Of a stretch of 64,000 nucleotides of DNA, positions 1 to 22,074 are shown in pieces. The position numbers and the translations under genes are program-made. The notes below the pieces were generated by a model. It was not told the origin of the DNA. It was given only the letters and a program-made list of their open reading frames with translations, and did not search any database. Every line of letters begins with the position of its first letter. Position 1 is the first letter of the stretch. Source of the stretch: Methylolobus aquaticus (GTDB lineage Bacteria > Pseudomonadota > Gammaproteobacteria > Methylococcales > Methylococcaceae); assembly GCA_004168015.1 (NCBI GenBank), contig SEYW01000004.1, positions 124,001 to 188,000 on the forward strand, given 5' to 3'.

Positions 1-468
1 CGAGAGCGTCGTGTGGTCCTCGGTTAGACGTGTGATCTTGCCGTGCATGAGTCGATATCCGCGCGAATCGCCCGCGTGCCACAAGCGTATGTGCGCCGCA
101 CTGGCCTCCGCCACGACGAGTGTGGCGGCCGCGTCTTCAAGGCGTGGATCGTGATCGAGTGCCGCCATAAGCCGTGTTTGAATCTGCTCCGTGCGGCCCT
201 GGGGATTGATCTTTGGCGATGCGGGGTAGGTGTCCCGAAGACTTTCCAACAGCACTCTCGCTGCCGCAGCGGGTTGTGGATGACCACTGACTCCGTCACT
301 GATCGCGAATGGGTGTACCGTTCCGGCGGCGAGCGTGCCGCAGAGGATTTCAGGCTTCTGTATGACCTGCCCTGCGATCAGGATGGCATCCTGATTTCGC
401 GCGAATGGCTTGCCCCGATGGGTCAGAGCCGCGTAATGGATGGTTATCTCAGGCGGCGTTGTGGTCAT
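1..468 (-). CDS. PP2C-family serine/threonine protein phosphatase, N-terminal part
   Basis: The reverse strand is open from an ATG at 468 to the left edge, giving 156 residues of a metal-dependent PP2C phosphatase that continues outside the window. Visible family motifs are RNQDA near residue 22 (the usual place of RxxNED), FAISDGVSGH near residue 53 with the metal-binding Asp-Gly pair, and HAGDSRGYRL followed by TEDHT near the truncated end. These fit in order and spacing. PP2C enzymes remove phosphate from Ser/Thr with two Mn/Mg ions. It points the same way as the DUF2779 gene about 270 bp upstream, so the two may be co-transcribed. A partner kinase would be expected beyond the edge, but that is inference. 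The long forward ORF over this stretch is its shadow. Confidence 0.85.
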   Translation of the reverse strand, partial: MTTTPPEITIHYAALTHRGKPFARNQDAILIAGQVIQKPEILCGTLAAGTVHPFAISDGVSGHPQPAAAARVLLESLRDTYPASPKINPQGRTEQIQTRLMAALDHDPRLEDAAATLVVAEASAAHIRLWHAGDSRGYRLMHGKITRLTEDHTTLS

Positions 469-735
469 GATGCGTGTTTACTGCCCACAATCATGCCGTC
501 GGCACCGTTCTGCGGAGACCTGTGCGACGGGAGTCGGATTTTGGTCGTCGGCTCGAGAGAAAAGGCCAATGACCACGCGCGGACGTTGAATGTGTCGCAG
601 CAGTTGCGTGACGCTTGGTACACCAGGCTGATCTCGGTAGGGGCGCGGGACGATCGGGCGGATTGCATCCTACGAGCGGTCGGTGACCTTGGTACGGTGA
701 GATTGCACATGCGGCATCGCTTAACGTACGGTTGT
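469..735. other. Gap between nuclease and phosphatase genes; no confident gene
   Basis: This 267-bp gap lies between the stop of the DUF2779 gene and the start of the phosphatase. On the reverse strand one frame starts with an ATG overlapping the DUF2779 stop (ATGGCTGA) and stays open for about 95 codons, but its composition is Arg/Ser/Cys-rich and I recognise no motif. Another reverse frame looks more protein-like near 480-600 but carries stops and no good start. It could be a small unrecognised gene or a decayed one. Confidence 0.3.
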
Positions 736-2238
736 TCAGCCATCTTGTCTCCAATCATCGCTTGTTTCGCTGACGGTGCGGCCTGCGAGATGCCACGCAA
801 TCCGGACTGCGGCCAACGTGTCAGTGTGACAGTAGCGAAGTAGGCTCTCTCGCAGCTCGGCTCGCCGCGCGGGCGGTGTCTCGGCAGTGATGAGTTCCAA
901 GTACGCTTCCTGTGCCATTGCACCGTGCTGCACGGCCAAAGTGACATAGTCCAACTCGGGTGCGATTGTCGGTAGCACGGATTTGATCGACCATGATCCC
1001 TGCATATAGGGGTGGTAATAGTGCTGCCGCGTCAACGGTAGCAAGTCGAATAGGCGCGCGGCGATCGCATGGAGAGGTGAGGTTAGATCGGGCAGGTCAG
1101 CTGCGAGTTGTCGAATGATGGTGCCTTCGAACCCAGCGTTATAAACGATGACCGCGCCGTCCTCACCGACCGCCTCGATGAGCGCTTCGGCAAAATCCCG
1201 ACGAGGATCCTCCCCGTCGTCTTTCAGAAACTCGCTGTGAAACTGTTCACCCGGTGCTCGCTCGCGATGGCAGGACCATTGGAAGCCGACTTGCTGATAA
1301 GGGTGCATCCCGGCCCAGATCGGTACGGCGAACTGGATCGTTTCGAAATCGATGTAGTAACGCGGATAAGGCAGAGCACGAAGTTCGTCGGCTGCGACCG
1401 GATCGAATTCTGCCTTGCGGGACTGCGCTGCCCGCCGCATCCGCTGGTGCTGGGGGCGGGTCAGCCGTTCGGCCGGGACCTCCCGAAGATCGCGATAGCC
1501 GTCGGCCAACAACTCGGCGATGAGGTTGCCGCCCTGCGGGAGGCTCTCGACGGGAAACAGTGTCCCGTCCTTGGCCAAGGCGCGGTGGCAGTGCTTGATG
1601 AAGGGACAATCAAATGGTTCGCTACACTGCGCGCCAGGAAGGATCATGGGCGCAGCGGTCGCCAGCGTGGCTCGGGCACGTGTGACCCAGCGAGGCACTT
1701 CTGGCAACAGTGCCGCGATCTGCTGCGTCACGTCGACAGTTCGGAGCAAGCCGCGGTAGTCGCCGCCACCGGGATAGACAAAGCCGGTTTCTATATGCGT
1801 CAACAGCACTTGTGTGAGAGGGAAGCCGGCGCCGCTGCAAACCCAGGCTTTCACCGCGCAATCGCGCAAGTGATAGTCTTTAACGGAGGTGCTGGCCTTG
1901 ACCTCGATCAACCGGAAGTTGGTCCCGTGCGGCTGCAGAACATCGACTCGGACCACAACGTCGTCATATGCAACAGCGGCCTCGAAAATCGGACGGCCGG
2001 GATGATCCCATAGTATCCGAATCGTTTTCCGGTGCGCCTCGTCGAAGCATTCGGCTTCGATCACTTTGCCGCCGGGATAGAGGGAGTGGGCCAACTCACC
2101 GATGCCCCTACCGCGCGCTAATGTCGCGGTGCCCTGGTCGATGTGGGCGGCACACTGAGGGCGGTAGACCTGCAGCCATAGCCGTTTCGGACATTGTAGA
2201 AAGCTGAGCAGACGGGATTTGGACAGACCATGGGACAT
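736..2238 (-). CDS. DUF2779 protein: Cas4-like Fe-S nuclease domain joined to a DEDD exonuclease domain
   Basis: A 500-residue protein with two nuclease folds. Residues 1-220 look like Cas4/AddB-type PD-(D/E)XK nucleases: C16 in LQCPKRLWL, D99 in RVDV, E112-V-K114 in LIEVKAS, and C205, C211, C217 near the end of the domain, i.e. the four-cysteine 4Fe-4S pattern with one early and three late cysteines. Residues 290-500 are the DUF2779 domain with DEDD exonuclease signs: D297 and E299 in YYIDFETI, then YNAGFEGTII, then RYCHTDTLAA. An upstream in-frame TTG at 2310 would place an inverted repeat inside the gene, so I chose the ATG at 2238 at LSKSRLLSFLQCPKR. No strong ribosome site is visible. 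Role unknown; the WYL regulator and phosphatase neighbours suggest a defence or DNA-repair setting. Confidence 0.85.
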   Translation of the reverse strand: MSHGLSKSRLLSFLQCPKRLWLQVYRPQCAAHIDQGTATLARGRGIGELAHSLYPGGKVIEAECFDEAHRKTIRILWDHPGRPIFEAAVAYDDVVVRVDVLQPHGTNFRLIEVKASTSVKDYHLRDCAVKAWVCSGAGFPLTQVLLTHIETGFVYPGGGDYRGLLRTVDVTQQIAALLPEVPRWVTRARATLATAAPMILPGAQCSEPFDCPFIKHCHRALAKDGTLFPVESLPQGGNLIAELLADGYRDLREVPAERLTRPQHQRMRRAAQSRKAEFDPVAADELRALPYPRYYIDFETIQFAVPIWAGMHPYQQVGFQWSCHRERAPGEQFHSEFLKDDGEDPRRDFAEALIEAVGEDGAVIVYNAGFEGTIIRQLAADLPDLTSPLHAIAARLFDLLPLTRQHYYHPYMQGSWSIKSVLPTIAPELDYVTLAVQHGAMAQEAYLELITAETPPARRAELRESLLRYCHTDTLAAVRIAWHLAGRTVSETSDDWRQDG

Positions 2239-2289
2239 TCGTTGCACCAACTGGAACGCATTGCGTGACAGGGCCAAGTCTACCGGTGT

Positions 2290-2310
2290 TTGCGACACTT
2301 TCTGTCGCAA
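2290..2310. promoter_or_regulatory. Perfect inverted repeat, candidate operator of the WYL regulator
   Basis: TTGCGACA at 2290-2297 and TGTCGCAA at 2303-2310 are exact reverse complements separated by 5 bp. The 21-bp element lies between the divergent nuclease gene (ATG 2238) and the WYL gene (ATG 2393), 52 bp from one start and 82 bp from the other. Dyads of this size in a divergent promoter are typical binding sites for dimeric winged-helix regulators. That the WYL protein binds it is inference. Confidence 0.55.
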
Positions 2311-2392
2311 TCGTGTCCGATGATGACGGTGCTCACAATCCGGTCACTGTGCCACCGGACTTTTTCCTGCCCTCGACCGAACTTGCACAAAG

Positions 2393-3403
2393 ATGAGTGT
2401 CACTTCACACCACCGTATCGAACGACTGAAACGACTGGAATCTCTGATTCCTTCGGCGGCCATGCTGCATGACGAATGTCCGGACGGAACACGTCTTCAG
2501 GAGATACTTTCAGAAGTTTACGGAAGCCGTGACAACCCAAGCGGCCGACGCGCGCTTGAGCGCGATCTGCAGGAACTCACCAAGGACGGTCGCATCGAAG
2601 CCGTTGATCCCCTGAAGAAGCCGCGCCGCTACCGACGCTGTGCGGATGATCTCGATGAGGATCCACTTGTTGGGCAGTACACCCTGCAGCAAATCCGAGA
2701 CTTGGTTGCCGAGGCGGTACCGGCAAAGCGGTTGGATCGGTTGTGGCAACGTCTGCTGAGCGAAATCGATCCTCCGCCTTTGGATGAGCAGCGTGTTAGG
2801 ACCATACCGGATACCTTCCGACTGCAACCGGTCGAGATCTACCCCGCCGTATTGCATGCGGTCATTCGGGCTTTGGCCGAGCATTCCGCGTTGCAAGTCC
2901 TTTACGAGAACGCCAACGCAGAGCGTGGGGAACCGATCCTTCATCCGCAAGCCTTGCTGCAGCGTGGGCCGATTCCGTACCTTGTGGCCTTAAAGAATGA
3001 CGAGACTGCGCCCTTCCGTTTGTATGCTCTGCATCGCATGATTCGGGCGGAGGTGCTGACGGGGAAGGTGGCCCGGACCGCAGAGAACTTCGATCTCGAT
3101 GCCTTCATTCGTGATGGAAAGGGGGATTTCGGAGAAGGAGAGTTGGTGAAACTGGAACTCCGCGTTCGCGGTTATCTGGATACCGTCCTGCGTGTCTGCC
3201 CGTTGAGTGCGGACCAGAAGATCGAGGATGAACCGGAGGACTCCGACTTTACCCTTCGTGCGTGCGCGCAGGTGCCTTCCACCGGCCAACTGCTACGTTG
3301 GTTACTTGGTGCTGGGGATAATCTCGAAGTCCTGGCCCCGGAGGAACTGCGCCATGTAGTCGCGATGCAGGCTGCGAAGATGGCTGCGCTGTACCAAGAG
3401 TGA
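2393..3403 (+). CDS. WYL-domain transcriptional regulator
   Basis: A 336-residue protein. Residues 1-85 resemble a winged helix-turn-helix (a stretch around RRALERDLQELTKDGRIE is the usual wing and recognition region of WYL regulators). Residues 150-225 match a WYL-type sensor domain: LQVLYENANAE, then LHPQALLQRGPIPYLVAL and FRLYALHRMIRAEVL, where the family usually has P..L....WYL....D....R.F...RI. The C-terminal 100 residues look like the WCX extension. Such proteins regulate phage defence and DNA-damage genes, often by binding a nucleic acid or nucleotide ligand. It is transcribed away from the DUF2779 nuclease with a perfect dyad between the two, suggesting it controls itself and that operon. 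Confidence 0.85.
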   Translation: MSVTSHHRIERLKRLESLIPSAAMLHDECPDGTRLQEILSEVYGSRDNPSGRRALERDLQELTKDGRIEAVDPLKKPRRYRRCADDLDEDPLVGQYTLQQIRDLVAEAVPAKRLDRLWQRLLSEIDPPPLDEQRVRTIPDTFRLQPVEIYPAVLHAVIRALAEHSALQVLYENANAERGEPILHPQALLQRGPIPYLVALKNDETAPFRLYALHRMIRAEVLTGKVARTAENFDLDAFIRDGKGDFGEGELVKLELRVRGYLDTVLRVCPLSADQKIEDEPEDSDFTLRACAQVPSTGQLLRWLLGAGDNLEVLAPEELRHVVAMQAAKMAALYQE

Positions 3404-11924: not shown

Positions 11925-13349
11925 TCACCGCGATCGCTCCAGCGTGTTGCGGCCCACGGTGTAGCAATGCAGGCTCGTTGGCGCAAACTCGACGTCAATG
12001 CCATCCACCGTCTTCACGCCCCTGGCCGTCCGCGTGGTCACCAGCGGCATCCGGGCGAGCGTGTGCAGTCGGGCGAAGTCGACCAGGCCCTTCACCTCGC
12101 GGGGGTCGTCCCAGGGCCGGTCGGACCACTTCACCTCCACGGCAAAGCGCGGTTTCTGCCTCGCATCGAGGCTGACCAGATCAACCTCGCCCTTCTTCCA
12201 GCGCGCGTAGTGCAGCGATTCGATATAGGCATCATTGTGCAGCCACTGGCTGAAGACGGCTGTCTCCACCAGATGCCCGATGGCCGGGTGGTCCGCGGTC
12301 AGCGGCGCGAACAGCGCAGCCCGCATCGTCGAGTTCGTCAGGTACACCTTGAAGGTCATCGCTTTGCGAAAGCGCGCGGCGTTTTCGTCCACGCGGCGGA
12401 TGCGCTTGATGAGGAAGGCCGCCTCCAGGTAGTCGAGGTATTTGGCCAGCGTGGGCTTGCTGACGCCGCTGGACTGGGCTAGGCCCTCCAGGCTGATTTC
12501 CTCCGCCGAGTTGTAGGCCAGGGTGTTGAAGAGTGAGTTCAGTTCCTGCACGTCGGCAATGCCGTACAGGCTGGGCAGGTCGCGCAGAAGCACCTTGTCG
12601 ATGATGTCGTTCTTGATATAGCGGCGCGGGTTCCGGCGCACGGCTTCCGAGAACACGGCCTCGGGGTAGCCGCCGAAGTTCAGGTAGTGGATGAAGGTGT
12701 CATTCAAGCCCGTGATGTCCAGTGCCTTGAAGCGCGAGGCGTCGTCGCGGTCATCGTCGCTAGCGATGAGGTCGTCCTCGGCACCGGTGAAGCGCAGATA
12801 TTCGAAGAAGGTCAGTGGCGGCAACACGAACTCGGTGAAACGCCCGGCACCGCTCTCCGCGCTCTTGTGCTTCAGCGCCGCAGCAGCCGAGCCGGTGGCC
12901 ACGAAGCGGCAGCCACGCTGTGTGTCGACCAGCGACTTGAGATGCACCTCCCAACCCTTGAGGTACTGAATCTCGTCGAAGAACACGTACAGCGGCGCGC
13001 CCGGCGAACGCTCGAACGCCCGCTGGAAGCGCCGCACCAGTCTGTCGAGGCTTTGGCCGAAATAGGTCGGGGTTTCGAGCGACACATAGAGGATGTCGCG
13101 TCCGGCCACCCCGTCGCGCAGCAGGGCGTCGATCGTGTGGAAGACCATGATGGTCTTGCCCACACGGCGCGGTCCCAGCAGCAGCACGGCGCGTTGCGGC
13201 GCTGTCTGGCGCACCAATCGCGCAAAGGGCGGGAGATACGCGCGGCGGGGGAACTCGGCGTAGTCCCGGTCGATGCCCGCGCCAGACACCCACCAGGGGT
13301 TCTCTTCGCGCAGACGGTTGTCGATTTCCTGGTCGGAGACTTGGAGCAC
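11925..13349 (-). CDS. AAA ATPase with DUF4143 domain
   Basis: A 474-residue protein of the AAA_14/DUF4143 class. Walker A is LLLGPRRVGKTIMVFH near residue 57; Walker B is LYVFFDEIQYLKGWEVHLK; FVATGSAAAAL is the sensor I region. Residues 230-300 carry YLNFGGYPEAV and the winged-helix part LEGLAQSSGVSKPTLAKYLDYLEAAFLI. The C-terminal part has PD-(D/E)XK nuclease-like signs, KGEVDLVSL and RFAVEVKW. These ATPases are widespread in accessory regions and their function is poorly known; defence or mobile-element roles have been proposed. Start is GTG at 13349. It lies downstream of the hsdM fragment and hsdR on the same strand and is probably cargo of the same island. Confidence 0.85.
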   Translation of the reverse strand: MLQVSDQEIDNRLREENPWWVSGAGIDRDYAEFPRRAYLPPFARLVRQTAPQRAVLLLGPRRVGKTIMVFHTIDALLRDGVAGRDILYVSLETPTYFGQSLDRLVRRFQRAFERSPGAPLYVFFDEIQYLKGWEVHLKSLVDTQRGCRFVATGSAAAALKHKSAESGAGRFTEFVLPPLTFFEYLRFTGAEDDLIASDDDRDDASRFKALDITGLNDTFIHYLNFGGYPEAVFSEAVRRNPRRYIKNDIIDKVLLRDLPSLYGIADVQELNSLFNTLAYNSAEEISLEGLAQSSGVSKPTLAKYLDYLEAAFLIKRIRRVDENAARFRKAMTFKVYLTNSTMRAALFAPLTADHPAIGHLVETAVFSQWLHNDAYIESLHYARWKKGEVDLVSLDARQKPRFAVEVKWSDRPWDDPREVKGLVDFARLHTLARMPLVTTRTARGVKTVDGIDVEFAPTSLHCYTVGRNTLERSR

Positions 13350-13483
13350 GGCGGCGGGTCATGTCATCAAGAGAAACGAATTTTGTCTGATCGCCGATAT
13401 CAAAGCAATTCAAGTTTGCTTGATTCTGTAGCCTCAGGCGCGGTGTCTAAACGTCGCCGCCATGTTCGAAGGTGAGCCATAGA

Positions 13484-13702
13484 TCAGGCCGGCTTCTCGG
13501 CCAAGTCACCCGCGATCAACCGGAACTGCTCCAGCGCCGCCTCCAGATCGTCCACGATCTCCTGCGCGATCACCTCGGGTGGCGGCAGGTTGTCGGAATC
13601 GGCCAGGCTGTCGTCCTTGAGCCAGAAGATGTCCAGGCTCGCCTTGTCGCGTGCCACCAGCTCGTCGTATTCGTAGGCGCGCCAGCGGCCGTCAGGCGTC
13701 AT
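13484..13702 (-). pseudogene. Fragment of a type I DNA methylase, C-terminal end only
   Basis: 72 codons match the extreme C-terminus of a family of HsdM/N-6 DNA methylases: GRWRAYEYDELVARDKASLD, FWLKDDSLADSDNLP, then EVIAQEIVDDLEAALEQF. In those proteins this tail follows about 450 residues of methylase, none of which is present. The frame stays open only to about 13752 upstream and shows no further homology. It is not the C-terminus of the intact HsdM at 20353-22002, which ends differently, so it comes from another system. It lies 77 bp beyond the end of hsdR and is best read as the scar of a replaced hsdM. Expression as a small protein cannot be excluded. Confidence 0.75.
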
Positions 13703-13779
13703 TCCGGCCTCCGAGCCGGAATCCGGTTCAGCACTGGCATCGCTGAGCGGACACCCTCAATTCATTGATTGTACGGGGT

Positions 13780-16700
13780 CTACCGGGTCCACTCGTCCGA
13801 CAGCCGCTCCGCCTGTTCCAGCACCAGTCGGATGGCTTCTTCCTGTTTATCGGGCGGGTACTTATAGCGGCGCAAGGTGATTCGCACCAGGTTCCGCAAG
13901 CGTGCCCGCACGCTCTCACGCTTCTGCCAGTCAACGCTCGTGCTGCTGCGCAATTTTTCGGTCAACTCGAACGCGATCTTCTTCAGCACGTCATCGCCCA
14001 GTTCGCGCACCGCACTCTCGTTGTTCGCCAGGGCATCGTAGAACGCGAGCTCCGATTCGTTCAGCCCCAAGTTCTCGCCGCGCTTGGCTGCTTCGCGGAA
14101 CTCCTTCGCCATAACGATAAGTTCCTCAATCACCTGTGCGCTTTCTATCGCTCGGCTGCGGTAACGGTTCAGCGCCACCTGCAGTCGATCACTGAACTTC
14201 TTCTCCACAATGACGTTGGTGCGACTACGCGACTTGATCTCGTCGTTCAGGAGTTTCTGCAGCAGTTCCACGGCGAAGTTACGTTGCGGCAACTGCCGCA
14301 CCTCCTCGAGAAAGGCGTCAGACAGCAACCCGATATCCGGTCGTTCCAGGCCCGCGAGCTTGAAGATATCCTCGACGCCATCGGCGACCACCGCGTTATC
14401 GAGAATTTGCTTGAGCACTGCATTCTTGCGGTCTTGAGCCAGCTTCTTGTCGGTTTCCGTCGCCTTGGCGATGACATTCTTGATCGCCTGAAAGAACGCA
14501 ATCTCCTCACGCAGGTCGATTGCCTCGTCCATGGTCCCGCAGAGTGAGAAGGCTTTGGTGATCGCCAGCACCACATCGAACCAGCGCTTCTTCCCGTCCT
14601 CCAGCCCCAACACAAAGTTGGCGGCCGGCAGCAGCAAGCTGACAGCCTCGGTGCGAAAGTCCTGGTAGTCGAAGCCGTAGAGGATGCCCCGTGCGACCTC
14701 CATCAATTCCTGAAGCTTGGCGAGCGCCTCCGCCGTGTCCAGGGTCGGTTGGCCTTTACCGCGGCTTTCCGTGTAAGTCTTCAGTGCTCGGCGCAATTCT
14801 GCCGCGATGCCGATGTAGTCCACCACCAGGCCGCCCTCCTTGTCCCGGAACACCCGGTTTACCCGAGCAATGGCCTGCATCAGGTTGTGGTCGCGCATCG
14901 GCTTGTCCACATACATCGTGTGCAGGCAGGGCACGTCAAAGCCGGTGAGCCACATGTCGCGCACGATCACGATTTTCAGCGGGTCGCTCGGATTCTTGAA
15001 TCGCTTCTCCAGCAGCTTCTTGGCCCTGTTGGAGTAGATATGCGGCCGTAGTTTCCCGTCATCGGCGGCCGAGCCGGTCATTACGATTCGGATGACCCCA
15101 TCGTCGGGGCTATAGTGGCTTGGCTTCTCGGCATCCTTGCTCGGAACCAGGGTGCCTTGCCACTGCGGTCGCAGCGCGACGATCGCATCAAACAGGTCCA
15201 CGCAGATCTGGCGGCTCATGGCCACAATCATCGCCTTGCCGTCGATGGCAGCCACACGCCCCTCGAAGTGCTTGACCAGGTCCGCGGCGACTTCCCGAAC
15301 GCGTGGCTCGGCGCCCACCAGTTTTTCCAGGGCGGCCCACTTGGTTTTGGCCGCTTCTTTTGCGGCGTCCTCCTCGTCCTCGAAGATTTCCTCGACCTGG
15401 TCGCTGAGTTCTTCGATCTCGGCCTGATTGATATCCAGTTTGACCAGGCGACTCTCGTAATAAATCGGTACCGTTGCGCCATCGTCTACCGCATCCTGGA
15501 TATCGTAGACACTGACGTAGTCACCAAATACCGCTCGCGTGTCCTTGTCCTCGGTCTCTACCGGCGTGCCCGTGAATCCGACGAACGTCGCATTGGGTAG
15601 CGCGTCGCGCAGATGCTTGGCGAAGCCGTACTTGAATTTTCCAGACTTTTTGTCGAGTACCGCCCGAAACCCATATTGCGAGCGGTGAGCCTCATCGGCG
15701 ATGACCACGACATTGGAGCGCTCGGTCAGCCTCGGGAACTGCTCCTCCTCTGCTGCGGGCGAGAATTTCTGCACCGTCGTGAAGATGATGCCGCCCGAGG
15801 GGCGGCCGGCGAGCAGTTCCCTCAGTTGCTCTCGACCTTCGGCCTGTTGCGGTGACTCCCGCAACAGCGAACGCGCGCCCATGAACGTCTGGAAAAGCTG
15901 ACCATCGAGGTCGTTGCGATCGGTCACGACCACTAAGGTCGGGTTCTGCATTTCGGCACGCTGCATCAACTTGGCTGCAAAACACACCATCGACAGGCTC
16001 TTGCCCGAACCCTGGGTGTGCCAGACGATCCCTCCCTTACGTGAACCGGCTTCGACCCGCTTGCCATAGGTCGCGCGTTCTTCTCGGGCGGCACGCTCCG
16101 GCACAGGAACTTGCGTCGCGGCAATCACTGCCACTCGCACCGCCTCACGCACCGCGTGGAATTGATGATAGCCGGCGATCTTCTTGATGACGCCGTCCTC
16201 GCCTTGTTCGAACAGCACGAAGTAGCGCAGGAAGTCGAGCAGCAGGTCCGGGGCGAAGAAGCCACGTACCACGGTTTCCAACTCGAACTGCAAGAGCGGC
16301 CGGTCGTTTTCATTACGGACCACACGCCAGGGTAGAAAGCGCTCGCGGTCGGCCGTCAGCGAGCCGATGCGCGCATTCAAGCCGTCGGAAATCACTGCCG
16401 CTTCGTTGAACACGAACAAGTCGGCAATCTCGGTCTTATAGGTCTCGATCTGGTTGAACGCGGACCAGATGTCCGCCTGCCGGTCGGTTGGGTTCTTTAG
16501 CTCGATGACGGCGATAGGCAGCCCGTTGATGAAGCACACCAGATCGGGCCGACGCGGCTGCTTGCTACCCTTTACTGTGAACTGGTTGACCACCAGATAT
16601 CGATTGGCCGGCGGGTGCTCGAAATCGATCAACCGCACGCGGTCGCCGCGCTTGTTGCCCCCTTGGCCCACTTCCACCGGCAGGCCATCGATCAGGGCCT

Positions 16701-16962
16701 CGTGAAAGCGCCTGTTGCTCTGCACCAGGGACGGCTCGTGCAACTTCGCTACCCGGTGCAACACCTCGTCGAGTACCGGCGCTGGGATACCTCGATTGAG
16801 GCGATGTAGGGCCTCCTGCAGACGGCCCGTAAGAATGAACTGCCGATAGTCGGCCCGTTCGGGTGTCTCGCCTTCCGGCGCGATGTCCGGCCCGTGTCGA
16901 TATTCCCAGCCGGCGTCCTGGAACCAGCTCAGGGCCAATTGTTCGAGTTCGTCCTCGGTCAT
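13780..16962 (-). CDS. hsdR: Type I restriction enzyme, R (motor/nuclease) subunit
   Basis: A 1060-residue HsdR, full length. The N-terminal nuclease domain has a PD-(D/E)XK site: D140 in RRPDLVCF, then E154 and K156 in IAVIELKNP. The SF2 motor follows: Walker A IVWHTQGSGKSLSMV, VVVTDRNDLDGQLF, DEAH box VVIADEAHRSQYG, motif III FVGFTGTP, then MWLTGFDVPCLHTMYVDKP and motif VI MQAIARVNRVF. The helical C-terminal domain carries the docking region. It cleaves DNA away from the recognition site after ATP-driven translocation, in complex with HsdM and HsdS. I chose ATG 16962 (MTEDELEQLALSWFQDAGW); the frame extends upstream to 17073 without homology. It is separated from hsdS by the broken DUF3800 gene and an hsdR fragment. 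Confidence 0.93.
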   Translation of the reverse strand: MTEDELEQLALSWFQDAGWEYRHGPDIAPEGETPERADYRQFILTGRLQEALHRLNRGIPAPVLDEVLHRVAKLHEPSLVQSNRRFHEALIDGLPVEVGQGGNKRGDRVRLIDFEHPPANRYLVVNQFTVKGSKQPRRPDLVCFINGLPIAVIELKNPTDRQADIWSAFNQIETYKTEIADLFVFNEAAVISDGLNARIGSLTADRERFLPWRVVRNENDRPLLQFELETVVRGFFAPDLLLDFLRYFVLFEQGEDGVIKKIAGYHQFHAVREAVRVAVIAATQVPVPERAAREERATYGKRVEAGSRKGGIVWHTQGSGKSLSMVCFAAKLMQRAEMQNPTLVVVTDRNDLDGQLFQTFMGARSLLRESPQQAEGREQLRELLAGRPSGGIIFTTVQKFSPAAEEEQFPRLTERSNVVVIADEAHRSQYGFRAVLDKKSGKFKYGFAKHLRDALPNATFVGFTGTPVETEDKDTRAVFGDYVSVYDIQDAVDDGATVPIYYESRLVKLDINQAEIEELSDQVEEIFEDEEDAAKEAAKTKWAALEKLVGAEPRVREVAADLVKHFEGRVAAIDGKAMIVAMSRQICVDLFDAIVALRPQWQGTLVPSKDAEKPSHYSPDDGVIRIVMTGSAADDGKLRPHIYSNRAKKLLEKRFKNPSDPLKIVIVRDMWLTGFDVPCLHTMYVDKPMRDHNLMQAIARVNRVFRDKEGGLVVDYIGIAAELRRALKTYTESRGKGQPTLDTAEALAKLQELMEVARGILYGFDYQDFRTEAVSLLLPAANFVLGLEDGKKRWFDVVLAITKAFSLCGTMDEAIDLREEIAFFQAIKNVIAKATETDKKLAQDRKNAVLKQILDNAVVADGVEDIFKLAGLERPDIGLLSDAFLEEVRQLPQRNFAVELLQKLLNDEIKSRSRTNVIVEKKFSDRLQVALNRYRSRAIESAQVIEELIVMAKEFREAAKRGENLGLNESELAFYDALANNESAVRELGDDVLKKIAFELTEKLRSSTSVDWQKRESVRARLRNLVRITLRRYKYPPDKQEEAIRLVLEQAERLSDEWTR

Positions 16963-17055
16963 GGTGCTGGGCCCGCCATAAGATATTCCGGCTTGAAATC
17001 TTCCTCCGGCGCACCGATAATCCGCACAGCGGATTGGGGATTCCCGGTCGGCAGC

Positions 17056-17090
17056 AGGCCTCGGTGGAAGCACCGGGGCCTTTTGTTTTT
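17056..17090 (+). terminator. Strong forward-strand intrinsic terminator, antisense to the hsdR leader
   Basis: AGGCC-T-CGGTG, loop GAAG, CACCG-G-GGCCT followed by TTTGTTTTT: an 11-bp stem (one U-G pair) with a 4-base loop and a nearly pure T tract, a textbook Rho-independent terminator reading left to right. All annotated genes around it read right to left. It must therefore end a forward transcript starting within or before the 5' end of hsdR, for instance an antisense or small RNA, or be left over from a lost gene. TAAGAT at about 16979-16984 could be a -10 element, but its -35 is weak. Confidence 0.75.
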
Positions 17091-17181
17091 CAGGGGAAAC
17101 ATTTCAACCCCCAGCCGTTGAGCTTGCCGCTGGCCCTGGTATATCGCTCCCGCAAGCTCTGATTCGGAATCTTTGCATCTA

Positions 17182-17376
17182 TCACGTAACGCAGACACCA
17201 ATGCTGATAACCGGCCAAAATCGGAACTTGCCTGTCCGTTCCACCGAATGGATTCGGCCCCAAAAGGATCGCAAACGCAAGCCGGTAGCCCGCTCGGGTG
17301 CATCACCTTCAGGCTCGATATCCTCTTGGTTCCGGCATGTCCAGCCAGCATCCTGGAACCAGGTCAAGCCGTTCAT
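17182..17376 (-). pseudogene. Fragment of a second hsdR, N-terminal start only
   Basis: About 35 codons at the start of this frame repeat the N-terminus of the neighbouring HsdR: LTWFQDAGWTCRNQEDIEPE followed by GDAPERA, against LSWFQDAGWEYRHGPDIAPE and GETPERA in the intact protein. After that the similarity stops and the remaining residues are unrelated. The identity is high but not complete, so this is a diverged paralogue or the 5' end of a related system lost by recombination, not a recent tandem duplication. It lies 220 bp upstream of the intact hsdR start and marks a recombination joint within the hsd operon. Confidence 0.8.
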
Positions 17377-17496
17377 GTTCGGATCCCGCGTGATTGACTT
17401 GGCTTGGTTTCTCGGTTAGCTTTAGCCTTACGCCGTGACTGCGCCGCTACTAGCAGGATCGCGAGGGAAACCTCCGACACGGCGCCTTACCCCTTG

Positions 17497-18254
17497 CTAC
17501 CAGCCCGTCTTCGGAAATTTCACCAGACCGTATCCTTCTATCTGGCCGGACGGCGAGCGTCTGAATGAGGGCTCGATCTGGGAATAGAACCGAGCGTCGC
17601 CTGCCTTGAACTGGCGGAAGACCGCGCCGGCCACCATGTCGGCAAACTGGATCCCGACGCTAAGATGTGAAGGCGCAATGAACAAGCCTTCGATCAGGTT
17701 TGCGTAGCGCGACGCCGTGGTCTTGGCACCCGCCAACAGTTGATGATGCAGCTCGCGCAGGCGTTCATCATCCTTGGGCGCGCGGTGATCGCAGACCACA
17801 ATGCCATGCACGCGCTGGCCGACGGTGCGCTCTAGGTCCTGTAGGTAGTACTGAAAGCGCTCGGTTAGTTGCTTGTAGCTGTACCAGTAAAGATCATCTG
17901 CCGTCCTGATGTAGGGCAGCCTGTAAGACATTGGCACATGCGTCACGACGCAGATGGTCCGCAGCGACTTGTAGTTCCGGATGGCCCCAAAGGCTTGCTA
18001 CGCAGGATCTCCTTTTGCGCCACGGTCAGGTGGGAAAGGCTGTTCGGCTTGGCCCCGGGTTTACTGGGCGCAAAATACCGCCACTTGATTTGCCCTTCGA
18101 TCTTGAAGGCAGCCTTCAAACGGTTAAGGTCGGTGGCGAGCTTGGTCCAGAAGTCCTCCGGCACCACAAGACCGCCGAGAACGAATAGCGGCGTGTCGTG
18201 CTGCTTTTCGGGCGGAGGCGGCGTTCCGGATTCATCGACAAACAGGATTTGCAT
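17497..18254 (-). pseudogene. DUF3800 protein gene, split by a frameshift
   Basis: Two overlapping reverse frames together make one DUF3800 protein of about 250 residues. The first part starts MQILFVDESGTPPPPEKQ (the conserved DESG motif) and runs to LTVAQKEILRSK. The second, in another frame, continues with AIRNYKSLRTICVVTHVPM, YRTADD-like contacts, GIVVCDHRAPKDDERLRE and VGIQFADMVAGAVFRQFKAG, the conserved DxxAGa end of the family. The break is at about 17990-18000 where one base appears to be missing (AAGCCTTTGGGGCC). DUF3800 proteins have an RNase H-like fold and are common beside restriction-modification and toxin-antitoxin genes. The start ATG lies 1 bp past the hsdS stop, so it is operonic. 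The lesion may be real or a sequencing error. Confidence 0.8.
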
Positions 18255-18255
18255 A

Positions 18256-19941
18256 TCAAGGGGATTCCGATGCCGCTATGTCTCGACCAACTGGCAGTTC
18301 GCCGGAGAGGAGCTTGGGGAGGAGGGTGTCGCGCACGGCGCCTAGTGTTTCCGATTCATGAACCCTTGCGGTAATCTGATCATACAGAGGCATGACGTAT
18401 TGATGAAAAGCTTTCAGCACATGCTTCCCGGGAACAAGCACGGCCATCGGTCGAAAGTTCGTTTTACTAATTTCAGCAAAGGTTGTTCCACTTCCTCTTT
18501 GCTTGATTGCGTCAAGATGCTCGATAGCCCATTGCAGAACATAGGTATTCGGCAGTCTCTTGTCGCAGACCATGGCGATGAAACCCTGATTGACTGAGAC
18601 GGGGATCATAGTCAGCGCTAGGTAACCAATCGGCGCCCTCGATGAAAGTAGTACCGTACCTATCTGCAGTTGGCCCGAGCTGATTTTCTTCACGCCTGCT
18701 TGCGTGATTTTTCTATCAGAACCAATTAACACCCTTGCAGTTGCTCCGGACAAGTCCTTTGGCGTAACCCACGCATACTCGCCATTCCAAAACTCGGGAT
18801 TGCCTGTGCTTGGTGTACCGCCACCGAGTATCGAAACTTCTTGGCCAATTGAACTCCACCGCCACCCCTGCGGAATCTCGCCGAGTTCGGAGTCGACGAG
18901 GCGGTCGGGGAAGAGGGCGAGGAGGTCGGGGGTTAGCCGTAAGTGGCGGCAGATGGACTCGGGTGGCTCGCCGCTGGCTTTGGCGCGAACGGGGTCGAAG
19001 TCGACGAACCAGGACTTGAAGATCGCCCGCGCGATGGCCTCCAGCGTTTCGTTCATCCGGCGGTTCAGCTCGATCTTGTCGTCGAGCGTACCGAGAACGT
19101 GGGCGATACAGCACTGTTCTTCAGGGGCTGGCAGACTAATCGTGAGCCGCTTCTGATCGACCAGGCTGAGATACGGCGCCATGTCAGTTGATGTCGACAG
19201 GCCGCGCAACTGACGCTGGAACTGTTCGCCTCTTGACCAATATCGCAGATAGCCGGGAGAAAGCACACTTGGATCCAAGGAGCGCCAGTAGCTCAAATGT
19301 GGCGAGTAAACGAACGGTGGCATCGAGTCATCAACGTATGCAACCCGTCCTGTGCTATTTCCTTTTGTGGTGACGACTACATCACCCGCCTTTGACATCT
19401 TGCTTGCGACCTTAGAAGCACGGTGCACATGAAACCGCTCGGCGCCATCAAACGTAATGTGCGTGTCCGACACTAACCCTGCACGGAGAAATATCGGACC
19501 ACTTCCGCCAAGCTCTTCGAGTTTCGCTCGATAGCCATCGCCGATCGCGAGGACACCTCGGCGAATTAGATCATCGAACGTCGCGATATTAAAATTTCCC
19601 GCCATGCCCCTTCTATACTGCCCCTCCTGCACCACCACCTTATCCCGCTCGATGATCTTGCGAAACGATTCACTGGTGGTGGCCCAGTCGACAACATCCA
19701 CCTTCCACGGCAAATCGGATTCGGACAAATCGTCGGCGAGCGCGGCGCTTACCGAGATGCTTAAGGGCCGGTCGGTGATCACCGCCAGATCGAGATCGGA
19801 ATAGTCCTTGGCCGTCCAAGTGGCGCGCGAACCAAAGGCCCAAACCTCGTACTGCGGTACATGCTTGTGCAGAATGTCGCGGACGATGACCCAGTGGTCG
19901 GGGCGAATGTCTATCCGCGGCGGCTTAGCGGTTGCGGACAT
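18256..19941 (-). CDS. hsdS: Nucleotidyltransferase-HsdS fusion: MntA-like domain joined to the type I specificity subunit
   Basis: A 561-residue protein. Residues 1-107 are a minimal nucleotidyltransferase: F36-G-S-R, then SDLDLAV with D49 and D51, and KVDVVDW with D82, i.e. all three metal-binding Asp. Residues 113-561 are a complete HsdS with two target-recognition domains, each ending in a coiled conserved region (ISLPAPEEQCCIAHVLGTLD followed by NRRMNETLEAIARAIFKSWF, and LKAFHQYVMPLYDQITARVH at the C-terminus). There is no stop between the parts. An internal ATG at 19605, with GAAGGGG just before it, could also give free HsdS. The ATG at 19941 overlaps the end of the HEPN gene by 17 bp, so translation is coupled. 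HsdS determines the DNA target; the MNT domain presumably AMPylates the HEPN partner. Confidence 0.88.
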   Translation of the reverse strand: MSATAKPPRIDIRPDHWVIVRDILHKHVPQYEVWAFGSRATWTAKDYSDLDLAVITDRPLSISVSAALADDLSESDLPWKVDVVDWATTSESFRKIIERDKVVVQEGQYRRGMAGNFNIATFDDLIRRGVLAIGDGYRAKLEELGGSGPIFLRAGLVSDTHITFDGAERFHVHRASKVASKMSKAGDVVVTTKGNSTGRVAYVDDSMPPFVYSPHLSYWRSLDPSVLSPGYLRYWSRGEQFQRQLRGLSTSTDMAPYLSLVDQKRLTISLPAPEEQCCIAHVLGTLDDKIELNRRMNETLEAIARAIFKSWFVDFDPVRAKASGEPPESICRHLRLTPDLLALFPDRLVDSELGEIPQGWRWSSIGQEVSILGGGTPSTGNPEFWNGEYAWVTPKDLSGATARVLIGSDRKITQAGVKKISSGQLQIGTVLLSSRAPIGYLALTMIPVSVNQGFIAMVCDKRLPNTYVLQWAIEHLDAIKQRGSGTTFAEISKTNFRPMAVLVPGKHVLKAFHQYVMPLYDQITARVHESETLGAVRDTLLPKLLSGELPVGRDIAASESP

Positions 19942-20356
19942 CCAAGGCTTCCAACAAGGCACAGGCGTCGCGAATAAAGGTCAGCGTGCCATCGTAAACG
20001 GCCTTGGCCTTCTGATGGTCGTATGTGTGTGCAGTAATGTTGCGCATCTTGCGATAGCCAAACCATGCTTCCACATCGGCAATCAATCCTTTTTCGGCTG
20101 CGGTACGCAAGAGATCGCGAAAATCGGCGAAATCGGCTTCCGTCGGACTTGCGGCTTCTTTCTCGATTTGCCTGCGTATCATTTTGACGCCGAGTTCGTA
20201 AACAAACTCAAAGTTCTGAATCACGCCGGCGATCAGGGTGTTTTTAACTGCAGGGGACTGTGCGTTGAACCAGTGATCGTTGCTCACCACGCCGATTCCC
20301 TCTTGAAGCGAAACGATCGCGTTACGAAACGCGCTCAAGTCGAGTTTTTCGGTCAC
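19925..20356 (-). CDS. HEPN-domain nucleotidyltransferase substrate-binding protein
   Basis: A 143-residue all-helical protein of the HI0074-like family that pairs with minimal nucleotidyltransferases. The catalytic/regulatory motif RX4HXY is intact at residues 105-112 (RNITAHTY). In HepT toxins this R and H form the RNase site and the Tyr is the residue AMPylated by MntA. Characteristic upstream helices read VIQNFEFVYELGVKMIRRQ and FRDLLRTAAEKGLI. Start is GTG at 20356 overlapping the hsdM stop by 4 bp (GTGA), and its 3' end overlaps the MNT-HsdS gene by 17 bp, so it is embedded in the hsd operon. It is probably a toxin kept inactive by the fused MNT domain, which is inference. Confidence 0.87.
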   Translation of the reverse strand: MTEKLDLSAFRNAIVSLQEGIGVVSNDHWFNAQSPAVKNTLIAGVIQNFEFVYELGVKMIRRQIEKEAASPTEADFADFRDLLRTAAEKGLIADVEAWFGYRKMRNITAHTYDHQKAKAVYDGTLTFIRDACALLEALDVRNR

Positions 20357-22002
20357 TTCGTTTTCTCCATGGCGAAGCCCAGGCTTGCAAGATTGCGCCG
20401 GATCGCAGTTTCCAGTTTTTCGCTCTCGGCAAACTGCTCGTCGAGCTGCCCGGTCAGCCGTGCCATCTTCTCCTCGAATAGCTCGCCGTCGGCCTCCTGC
20501 TCAGCCGCGCCCACGTAGCGGCCGGGCGTCAGCACGTGGTCGTGCTTGCGGATGTCCTCCAGCTTCGCGGCCTTGCAGAAGCCGGGCTCATCGGCGTAGC
20601 CCTCGCCACGCTTCCAGGTGTGGAAGGTGCCGGCGATCTTCTGGATGTCATCCGCGCTGAAGTCGCGCAGCACGCGGTCCTTCATGTAGCCCAGGTTGCG
20701 GGCATCGATGAAAAGCGTCTCGCCCGCGCGGTCGCGCCACTCATTTCGGGCGGACTTGCTGCGGGTGAGAAGCCAGATGCAGGCCGGGATCTGGGTGTTG
20801 GTGAAGAGCTGGCCGGGCAGCGCCACCATGCATTCGACGAGGTCGGCCTCGACGATGGCCTTGCGGATCTCGCCTTCGTTGTTGGTGCTGCTGCTCATCG
20901 AGCCATTGGCGAGCAACAGCGCCATGCTGCCCTGCGGTGCCAGGTGGTGGATCATGTGCTGCATCCACGCGAAGTTGGCGTTGCCCGCGGGCGGGATGCC
21001 GTACTTCCAGCGCGGGTCGTCGTCCTTCACGCCAGCGTTCCACTCCTTCATGTTAAAGGGCGGGTTGGCCATGATGTAGTCGGCGCGCAGGTCGGGGTGC
21101 TGGTCGCGGGTGTAAGTGCTGGCCGGTTCCTTGCCGAAGTCGTAGTCCATGCCCCGGATCGCCATGTTCATCGATGCGAGACGCCAGGTGGTGGGGTTGG
21201 ACTCCTGGCCGTAGATGGAAAGCTGGCCCACGCGGCCGCCGTGCTCCTCGACGAATTTTTCGCTCTGCACAAAGAAGCCGCCCGAGCCGCAGCAGGGGTC
21301 GTACACACGCCCCTGGAAGGGCTGCAGCATCTCGACGATGACGGTCACGATGCTCTTGGGTGTGTAGTACTGCCCGCCCTTCTTGCCCTCAGCAATGGCG
21401 AACTCGCCGAGGAAATATTCATAGACATGACCGAGGATGTCCTTGGCCTTGAGCGTGCCGTGGTGGAAGGGGATTTTGCCAATGACCTCGTTAATCAGGC
21501 CGGGTAGAGCATCGTCGATCTGCTTGCGGGCGTAGTCCTTTTCCAGAACCCCTTTGAGCTTGGGGTTCTCCTTTTCCACCGCCTCCAGCGCGTCGTCCAA
21601 TAGCCGGCCGATGCCCTTGAACTCGTACTCGTTGGTCTTGCCGTTCTTGACCTCCAGCTTGGTGCCAACGGCCACCTTGGCGTGCGCCTGGATGAAGTCC
21701 CAGCGCGCCAGCGCCGGCACCCAGAACACGTTCTTTTCCGTGTAGTAGTCGCGGGCTTCGAGTTCTTCGGCAATCAGATCGCCGGCATCGTCGCCCAGGT
21801 AGTAATCGTGCTGTGGGTCGCCAAAAGCGGCTTCCAACTCGGCACGCCGCTCCTTGAAAGCGTCCGAGATGTACTTGAGAAAGATCAGGCCCAGGACGAC
21901 GTGCTTGTAGACTGCCGCATCGAGCATGGGCAGCAGCCTGTTGGCAGCGTTCCAGAGTTTCTTATCGAGGCTGTTGAGGAATTCTCGTTCTGCCGGATTC
22001 AT
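20353..22002 (-). CDS. hsdM: Type I restriction-modification DNA methylase (M subunit)
   Basis: A 549-residue N6-adenine methyltransferase, full length. The helical N-terminal domain (FLNSLDKKLWNAANRLLP) precedes the catalytic domain: GGQYYTPKSIVTVIVEML, SAM motif I YDPCCGSGGFFVQ (residues 234-246), and the catalytic NPPF in YIMANPPFNMKEW (313-316). A C-terminal coiled stretch contacts HsdS. It protects host sites by methylating adenine in the sequence chosen by HsdS. ATG 22002 is used; a TTG three codons earlier is possible. It is the first gene of the operon hsdM-HEPN-MNT::hsdS-(DUF3800)-hsdR, each junction overlapping or nearly so up to DUF3800. Confidence 0.94.
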   Translation of the reverse strand: MNPAEREFLNSLDKKLWNAANRLLPMLDAAVYKHVVLGLIFLKYISDAFKERRAELEAAFGDPQHDYYLGDDAGDLIAEELEARDYYTEKNVFWVPALARWDFIQAHAKVAVGTKLEVKNGKTNEYEFKGIGRLLDDALEAVEKENPKLKGVLEKDYARKQIDDALPGLINEVIGKIPFHHGTLKAKDILGHVYEYFLGEFAIAEGKKGGQYYTPKSIVTVIVEMLQPFQGRVYDPCCGSGGFFVQSEKFVEEHGGRVGQLSIYGQESNPTTWRLASMNMAIRGMDYDFGKEPASTYTRDQHPDLRADYIMANPPFNMKEWNAGVKDDDPRWKYGIPPAGNANFAWMQHMIHHLAPQGSMALLLANGSMSSSTNNEGEIRKAIVEADLVECMVALPGQLFTNTQIPACIWLLTRSKSARNEWRDRAGETLFIDARNLGYMKDRVLRDFSADDIQKIAGTFHTWKRGEGYADEPGFCKAAKLEDIRKHDHVLTPGRYVGAAEQEADGELFEEKMARLTGQLDEQFAESEKLETAIRRNLASLGFAMEKTK

Positions 22003-22074
22003 TGGGTTCAATCAGTCGTGCCACCGGACTTTCGCCAGCGCGGCAGGTTAAGCGCGCCGTTCCCTGTGTGGAGA

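What the first reader, a model, noticed from the sequence alone, without database searches (positions are those of the whole stretch)
1..3403. PP2C phosphatase, double-nuclease DUF2779 protein and WYL regulator: candidate defence module
WYL regulators commonly control phage-defence operons. Here one faces a protein combining Cas4-like and DEDD nuclease domains, followed by a PP2C phosphatase whose kinase partner may lie beyond the edge. The perfect 21-bp dyad between them looks like a shared operator. I do not match this set to a named system.
Basis: partly seen in the sequence, partly recalled or inferred. Interest (0 to 1): 0.68.

Follow-up and report, generated by a model that had tools for sequence, protein, structure and literature searches.

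The report
WYL-controlled double-nuclease islet, possibly anti-phage
A methane-oxidizer relative has acquired a compact four-gene DNA islet, centred on a regulator and a protein carrying two DNA-cutting domains, which looks like an undescribed anti-phage cassette although no defence activity has been shown.

Summary
PP2C (complete once extended left, 276 aa), DUF2779 (ATG start at 2238, not the TTG at 2310) and a wHTH-WYL-WCX regulator are present. DUF2779 really is a double nuclease: a Cas4-like fold with invariant 4-Cys and PD-(D/E)XK residues, plus a DEDDy exonuclease fold, catalytic residues invariant in 22 relatives. A perfect 8-5-8 dyad lies in the divergent promoter region and is unique in the genome.

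Extending left finds no kinase but a PD-(D/E)XK nuclease (PDDEXK_4; PADLOC candidate PDC-S26). A same-genus genome has the two flanking genes adjacent (48 bp against 6,068 bp), so these four genes form one acquired islet with foreign composition.

Co-conservation is mixed. WYL lies near DUF2779 in 16 of 40 loci, far above chance; PP2C in only 3, PDDEXK_4 in 2. Relatives sit as cargo among prophage head genes, or beside SspBCD, Qat, an IetA-like AAA+ protein or a reverse transcriptase.

Best reading: a mobile WYL-DUF2779 nuclease cassette, probably defensive, with interchangeable partners. Nothing here shows anti-phage activity; the WYL ligand and the role of PP2C are unknown. No held paper or PADLOC model describes the pair.

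The parts
1..468 (-). N-terminal part of the PP2C phosphatase gene (complete gene 276 aa, G000:C32:123638-124468; start at 468, remainder left of the window)
469..735 (.). 267-bp gap between DUF2779 stop and PP2C start; no conserved ORF, no Rfam or tRNA hit
736..2238 (-). DUF2779 protein, 500 aa: Cas4-like PD-(D/E)XK nuclease with 4 invariant Cys (C16, C205, C211, C217) plus C-terminal DEDDy exonuclease (D297, E299, E371, D398, Y469, D473)
2290..2310 (.). perfect dyad TTGCGACA-CTTTC-TGTCGCAA, candidate WYL operator in the divergent promoter region
   Evidence: geometry as in published BrxR boxes
2393..3403 (+). wHTH-WYL-WCX transcriptional regulator, 336 aa
1..3773 (.). window part of the acquired islet (whole islet about C32:121706-127773, 6,068 bp; also holds PDDEXK_4 at C32:122018-123313, minus, left of the window)

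Best explanation
This is a horizontally acquired four-gene islet whose core is a WYL regulator and a DUF2779 double nuclease, most likely an inducible anti-phage / anti-foreign-DNA cassette. Shown: the four genes sit together in a segment absent from a same-genus relative; the DUF2779 protein carries two intact nuclease sites; WYL and DUF2779 genes are linked across Proteobacteria. Inferred: a WYL dimer binds the 8-5-8 dyad and holds down transcription of DUF2779 (and of itself). DNA intermediates of an invading phage or plasmid, probably single-stranded DNA as for DriD, PafBC and CapW, bind the WYL domain and switch transcription. The Cas4-like Fe-S nuclease and the DEDDy 3'-5' exonuclease then cut and degrade the foreign DNA. 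PP2C and PDDEXK_4 are accessory cargo: PP2C may reset a phosphorylated host protein, and PDDEXK_4 may be a separate nuclease effector. Rough weights: acquired islet 0.93; WYL and DUF2779 work as a unit 0.75; role is defence rather than repair 0.6; PP2C is a working part 0.35.
For: Empty site: in G341 (same genus) the genes for the cache/HAMP protein and the amino-acid permease are adjacent. The flanks align at 95.5% and 92.3%, with 48 bp between them against 6,068 bp here; junction sequences. Foreign composition: GC3 0.50-0.68 for the four genes, 0.84-0.86 for the flanks. DUF2779: invariant Cys quartet, E86/D99/E112/K114 and D297/E299/E371/D398/Y469/D473 in 22 relatives. AlphaFold2 model pLDDT 84: Foldseek best match Cas4 4r5q at E 1.6e-4; residues 291-485 match family-B polymerase exonuclease domains at Z 15.8, rmsd 2.4, 169 aligned. 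Linkage: WYL within about 6 kb in 16 of 40 DUF2779 loci; in the order, WYL is present in 7 of 7 DUF2779 genomes against 73 of 301 overall, p 4e-5, and close by in 6 of 7. Defence-type company: prophage head-gene cargo in L086 (terminase and portal) and in L174 (SU10 portal, reverse transcriptase, NgoFVII-type PLD nuclease); beside Qat in L033, SspBCD in L095, IetA-like AAA+ in 10 loci. Patchy distribution: 18 of 274 class genomes, 7 of 301 order genomes, none in two same-genus genomes. WYL model: DriD-ssDNA, PafBC, CapW-ssDNA and BrxR are the best folds.
Against: No experiment. 24 of 40 DUF2779 loci have no WYL nearby by this test, so DUF2779 can work without it. The WYL here is very divergent (end branch 3.99; 32% to the WYL of L082, whose DUF2779 is 56% identical), so the partner was swapped or evolves fast. 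WYL is normally co-directional with DUF2779 in relatives; the divergent layout is unusual. The dyad itself has a 3.4% chance score. PP2C occurs in 3 of 40 loci and PDDEXK_4 in 2. PDDEXK_4 has a distinctly lower GC, suggesting a separate arrival. No PADLOC or PHROG family covers DUF2779 beyond a weak Cas4 score.
Confidence: 0.5

Rival explanations
1. DNA-damage response module: the WYL protein is a DriD/PafBC-like activator that senses single-stranded DNA from host damage and turns on a DUF2779 repair nuclease; phage defence is at most a side effect.
For: The nearest folds and profiles of the WYL protein are the damage activators DriD and PafBC, better than BrxR/CapW. DUF2779 is classed among 3'-5' exonucleases, and Cas4/RecB-type exonuclease domains also serve repair (general knowledge).
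Against: Patchy distribution, an islet absent from a sister genome, cargo position in prophages, and neighbours such as SspBCD and Qat fit defence better than housekeeping repair.
Confidence: 0.2
2. Chance or opportunistic collection: four independently useful genes of the mobile gene pool were carried in together; WYL-DUF2779 may be a unit, but PP2C and PDDEXK_4 have no functional tie to it.
For: PP2C in only 3 of 40 and PDDEXK_4 in 2 of 40 DUF2779 loci. PDDEXK_4 has GC 0.46 / GC3 0.50 against 0.58-0.60 / 0.62-0.68 for the other three. 325- and 267-bp gaps separate the minus-strand genes. PDDEXK_4 alone matches a single-gene candidate, PDC-S26.
Against: The close PP2C family is rare (7 of 301 genomes) yet falls beside DUF2779 in G556 as well as here (overlap p 0.009); five of nine PP2C loci also hold a WYL of this type, one of them divergently adjacent (L141).
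Confidence: 0.25
3. Phospho-signalling defence system of the kinase / PP2C / vWA kind, with the kinase lost or elsewhere.
For: PP2C with metal-ligand motifs kept (NQD, SDG, GDSR, VSDG); kinase-PP2C-vWA triads are described in conflict systems; L036 carries an FHA-ARPP-1 protein in the same island.
Against: No kinase or vWA gene in the islet or among the ORFs searched in 20 kb to the left; the only Pkinase match in the assembly is on another contig. The assembly is about 90% complete, so a missed one is possible.
Confidence: 0.05

Closest known systems
BrxR / CapW family of WYL regulators of phage-defence islands
   Same: wHTH-WYL-C-terminal extension, defence-type neighbourhoods, inverted repeat with a 5-bp spacer upstream (published BrxR boxes: 10-11 bp arms, 5-bp spacer; PMC9122601)
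   Different: Sequence and fold are closer to DriD and PafBC; arms here are 8 bp; no BREX or CBASS genes in the islet
DriD and PafBC, single-stranded-DNA-sensing WYL-WCX activators
   Same: Same domain order including WCX; best profile and fold matches
   Different: Those control damage regulons; here one divergent nuclease gene. DNA sensing here is not tested
DUF2779 proteins (RNase H-like family F.17, with DUF83 / Cas4-like domain)
   Same: A member: PF11074 over cut-off, same two-domain make-up as published (PMC3985635)
   Different: The published family has no assigned biological role; the WYL linkage and prophage-cargo positions are observations made here
Solo-Cas4 and COG2251 (TM0106-type) RecB-like nucleases
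   Same: Cas4-like PD-(D/E)XK plus RNase H-like domain combination (COG2251, PMC3985635)
   Different: No helicase domain and no CRISPR or cas genes in the islet
PDC-S26 (PADLOC candidate single-gene defence, PDDEXK_4)
   Same: The fourth gene matches at 5.5e-41
   Different: Candidate only; not specifically linked to DUF2779

Membership tests
DUF2779 (PF11074) double-nuclease family | PF11074 domain over Pfam's cut-off | tested here: met
   149.3 bits against 23.3
DUF2779 (PF11074) double-nuclease family | Cas4-like domain with 4 Cys and PD-(D/E)XK residues | tested here: met
   C16, C205, C211, C217, D99, E112, K114 invariant in 22 sequences; Foldseek to Cas4 4r5q E 1.6e-4
DUF2779 (PF11074) double-nuclease family | RNase H-like DEDD exonuclease domain | tested here: met
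   D297/E299, E371, D398, Y469-x3-D473; Z 15.8 to a family-B polymerase exonuclease region
DUF2779 (PF11074) double-nuclease family | nuclease activity | not testable with these tools
   needs purified protein
WYL-WCX transcriptional regulators (DriD/PafBC type) | wHTH, WYL and WCX domains in this order | tested here: met
   PF13280 and PF25583 over cut-off; N-terminal helices, with DriD and PafBC the best folds (model pLDDT 72, from 3 sequences)
WYL-WCX transcriptional regulators (DriD/PafBC type) | binds single-stranded DNA through the WYL domain | not testable with these tools
   inferred from relatives only
BrxR family (WYL regulator of defence islands) | sequence membership among BrxR homologues | tested here: inconclusive
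   no single-sequence hit to solved BrxR; family profile hits BrxR only at E 0.06-0.12; fold match E 1.8e-7
BrxR family (WYL regulator of defence islands) | inverted repeat with about 5-bp spacer upstream of the gene | tested here: met
   2290-2310, 8-5-8, unique in the genome
Kinase-PP2C-vWA phosphorylation system | kinase gene adjacent to PP2C | tested here: not met
   none in the islet or 20 kb left; one Pkinase match in the assembly, elsewhere
PDC-S26 candidate defence gene | match to PDC-S26 model | tested here: met
   PDLC04983, 5.5e-41 for the PDDEXK_4 gene left of the window
CRISPR-Cas Cas4 | cas1 or cas2 next to the gene | tested here: not met
   flanking genes are cache/HAMP, PDDEXK_4, PP2C, WYL and permease
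Any system named in PADLOC 2.0 | its signature genes present together | tested here: not met
   DUF2779 scores only weakly as Cas4; PP2C weakly as PDC-M21C; no complete multi-gene system

The most novel reading that the evidence does not exclude
WYL-DUF2779 is an undescribed anti-phage system family: a DNA-sensing WYL-WCX regulator derepresses a single protein that combines a Cas4-like Fe-S nuclease with a DEDDy 3'-5' exonuclease. The core travels as an islet or prophage cargo and recruits interchangeable partners (IetA-like AAA+, SIR2-type protein, PP2C, PDDEXK_4).
Probability: 0.35. Interest if true: 0.68.

Novelty: new variant of a known kind. Interest (0 to 1): 0.5.

Why it matters
DUF2779 proteins are scattered across bacteria and have been predicted to be 3'-5' exonucleases, but in the library searched no paper gives them a biological role (6 papers hold the name). 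The genomic linkage to WYL regulators and the cargo position in prophages make a concrete, cheap test possible: clone a two- or four-gene cassette of about 3-6 kb and challenge it with phages. If it protects, it adds a nuclease type and its regulator to the known defence repertoire, and would help explain why WYL regulators sit beside so many unrelated systems.

Tried and rejected
Kinase partner to the left: not found. Small gene between DUF2779 and PP2C (94-aa frame at 465-749): no Pfam, PADLOC or NCBIfam hit and only weak short tblastx matches in the fetched loci; treated as non-coding. RNA or tRNA in the islet: none. Sigma-70 promoters and terminators: no more than shuffles give. Integrase, terminal repeats or target duplication at the islet ends: none seen; only a chance 5-bp repeat. 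Phage records (INPHARED): no DUF2779 match, although IMG/VR has nine. A PP2C relative in IMG/VR: none. The IetA-like AAA+ partner of relatives: not in this islet; only weak, partial AAA matches elsewhere in the assembly. Single-sequence search of the PDB with the WYL protein: nothing; a family profile was needed. A 5-bp-spacer dyad also turned up upstream of 3 other WYL genes (L036, L083, L157), a post-hoc pattern that I do not count as proof. The PP2C chance estimate for 39 loci uses the density of close relatives only and overstates the case for the distant PP2C of L036; I rely on the G556 overlap instead.
Full report
What is there. The window starts inside a PP2C gene. In the assembly (window = G000:C32:124001-188000) the gene is complete: 276 aa, C32:123638-124468, minus strand. 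Next, also on the minus strand, is a DUF2779 gene at 736-2238. The TTG start at 2310 proposed by ORF calling would put the dyad inside the gene; relatives begin at the equivalent of the ATG at 2238 (MSHGLSKSRLLSFLQCPKRLWL). A WYL gene runs the other way at 2393-3403. The 154-bp gap holds TTGCGACA-CTTTC-TGTCGCAA at 2290-2310.

Left of the window. The next gene, on the same strand 325 bp past PP2C, is a 431-aa PD-(D/E)XK protein (PDDEXK_4, 3.2e-18) that matches the PADLOC candidate PDC-S26 at 5.5e-41. Beyond it come a cache/HAMP sensor, a P-type ATPase, ribonucleotide reductase and other ordinary genes. No kinase was found there; the assembly's single Pkinase match lies on contig 41.

An islet with an empty site. 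In G341, a genome of the same genus, the cache/HAMP gene and the amino-acid permease gene that flank our genes are neighbours (95-96% identical proteins). Nucleotide alignment gives L003 1-1705 and 7774-9716 against one continuous stretch of G341 with 48 bp between (junctions). So 6,068 bp holding exactly PDDEXK_4, PP2C, DUF2779 and WYL occupy the spacer between two genes. GC3 is 0.50 (PDDEXK_4), 0.63, 0.68 and 0.62, against 0.84-0.86 in the flanks. I read this as an acquisition rather than a loss in G341. The low value of PDDEXK_4 hints that it joined separately. No integrase or target duplication was seen.

The DUF2779 protein. Pfam hit 8.3e-44; weak Cas4 score in PADLOC. In 22 relatives the Cas4-type cysteines C16, C205, C211, C217 and the PD-(D/E)XK residues D99, E112, K114 are invariant, as are D297, E299, E371, D398, Y469 and D473 of a DEDDy site. 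The AlphaFold2 model (pLDDT 84, pTM 0.78) matches Cas4, MGME1 and RecE, and its residues 291-485 match the exonuclease region of family-B polymerases with Z 15.8. A published classification places DUF2779 in the exonuclease clade of the RNase H-like superfamily and notes its DUF83 domain (PMC3985635).

The WYL protein. WYL and WCX domains. A 20-member family profile hits DriD, PafBC and, marginally, BrxR and CapW. The model, modest in quality (pLDDT 72), gives the same order: DriD-ssDNA-DNA, PafBC, CapW-ssDNA, BrxR. BrxR binds 10-11-bp inverted repeats with a 5-bp spacer (PMC9122601); the dyad here has 8-bp perfect arms and a 5-bp spacer, and is the only one in the assembly at up to 2 mismatches. 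Operator function is inferred. Papers found on DriD and PafBC report single-stranded DNA as the WYL ligand (abstracts); whether that holds here is not tested.

Co-conservation. DUF2779 relatives were sought in class, order and phylum samples and in plasmids. In 40 neighbourhoods (own included, some near-duplicates) a homologue of this WYL lies within about 6 kb in 16, mostly directly adjacent, an AAA+ protein with an IetA-like domain in 10, and PP2C in 3. In the order sample DUF2779 is in 7 of 301 genomes and all 7 also hold a WYL of this type (73 of 301 overall; p 4e-5; close by in 6 of 7). Three of these genomes are one genus, so the events are fewer than seven. The close PP2C family is in 7 of 301 genomes, overlapping DUF2779 in two (p 0.009). 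Its loci share a mosaic of other genes: WYL, AAA+, SIR2-type, GmrSD, and two small conserved families. The WYL here is very divergent from those beside close DUF2779 relatives, so partners are exchanged or evolve fast.

Company. Relatives of the pair or of DUF2779 sit between terminase and portal genes of a prophage (L086), downstream of the portal gene of another viral contig next to a reverse transcriptase and an NgoFVII-type PLD nuclease (L174), beside Qat (L033) and beside SspBCD with a GmrSD/DUF262-type protein (L095). WYL relatives sit beside SspBCD-family genes in four further genomes. This is typical company for defence genes, and is indirect evidence only.

Mechanism offered. WYL holds the divergent promoters through the dyad; a nucleic-acid ligand switches it; the double nuclease destroys invading DNA; PP2C and PDDEXK_4 are accessory. 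Each functional step is inferred from families. The main rivals are a loose collection of cargo genes and a damage-response module of DriD type.

Verdict. Real, correctly seen in outline, extended and corrected; a plausible undescribed WYL-regulated nuclease cassette; defence unproven.

Noticed in passing
window 11925-22011: Complete type I restriction-modification set (HsdR 13780-17073, specificity 18256-19962, methyltransferase 20353-22011) next to a DUF4143 AAA protein (PDC-S01 match), 8-18 kb from the islet.
   Followed up: partly
L086:4638-15357: DUF2779-WYL pair with a GIY-YIG protein and an M41 peptidase domain protein inserted between terminase large subunit and portal genes of a prophage.
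   Followed up: partly
L174:1-13476: IMG/VR contig with SU10-type portal, reverse transcriptase, unknown 785-aa protein, DUF2779 and an NgoFVII-type PLD nuclease in a row; looks like a defence cargo site.
   Followed up: partly
L149, L151, L154, L157: A distinct clade of WYL regulators is divergently placed beside SspBCD-family genes with a conserved extra gene (family F5) between; a possible dedicated Ssp regulator.
   Followed up: no
L036:1-16554: Large mosaic island: IetA-like AAA+, SIR2, FHA-ARPP-1 protein, DUF2779, PP2C, WYL, and ORFs that look by eye like RtcB and PrfH (not searched).
   Followed up: no
L141:7554-8464: PP2C divergently adjacent to a WYL in G515, but its C-terminus departs from the family and lacks the last metal-ligand motifs; probably a broken gene.
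   Followed up: no
L085 (G338:C1:1260603-1262062): DUF2779 reads in two overlapping frames, so it is probably frameshifted there.
   Followed up: no
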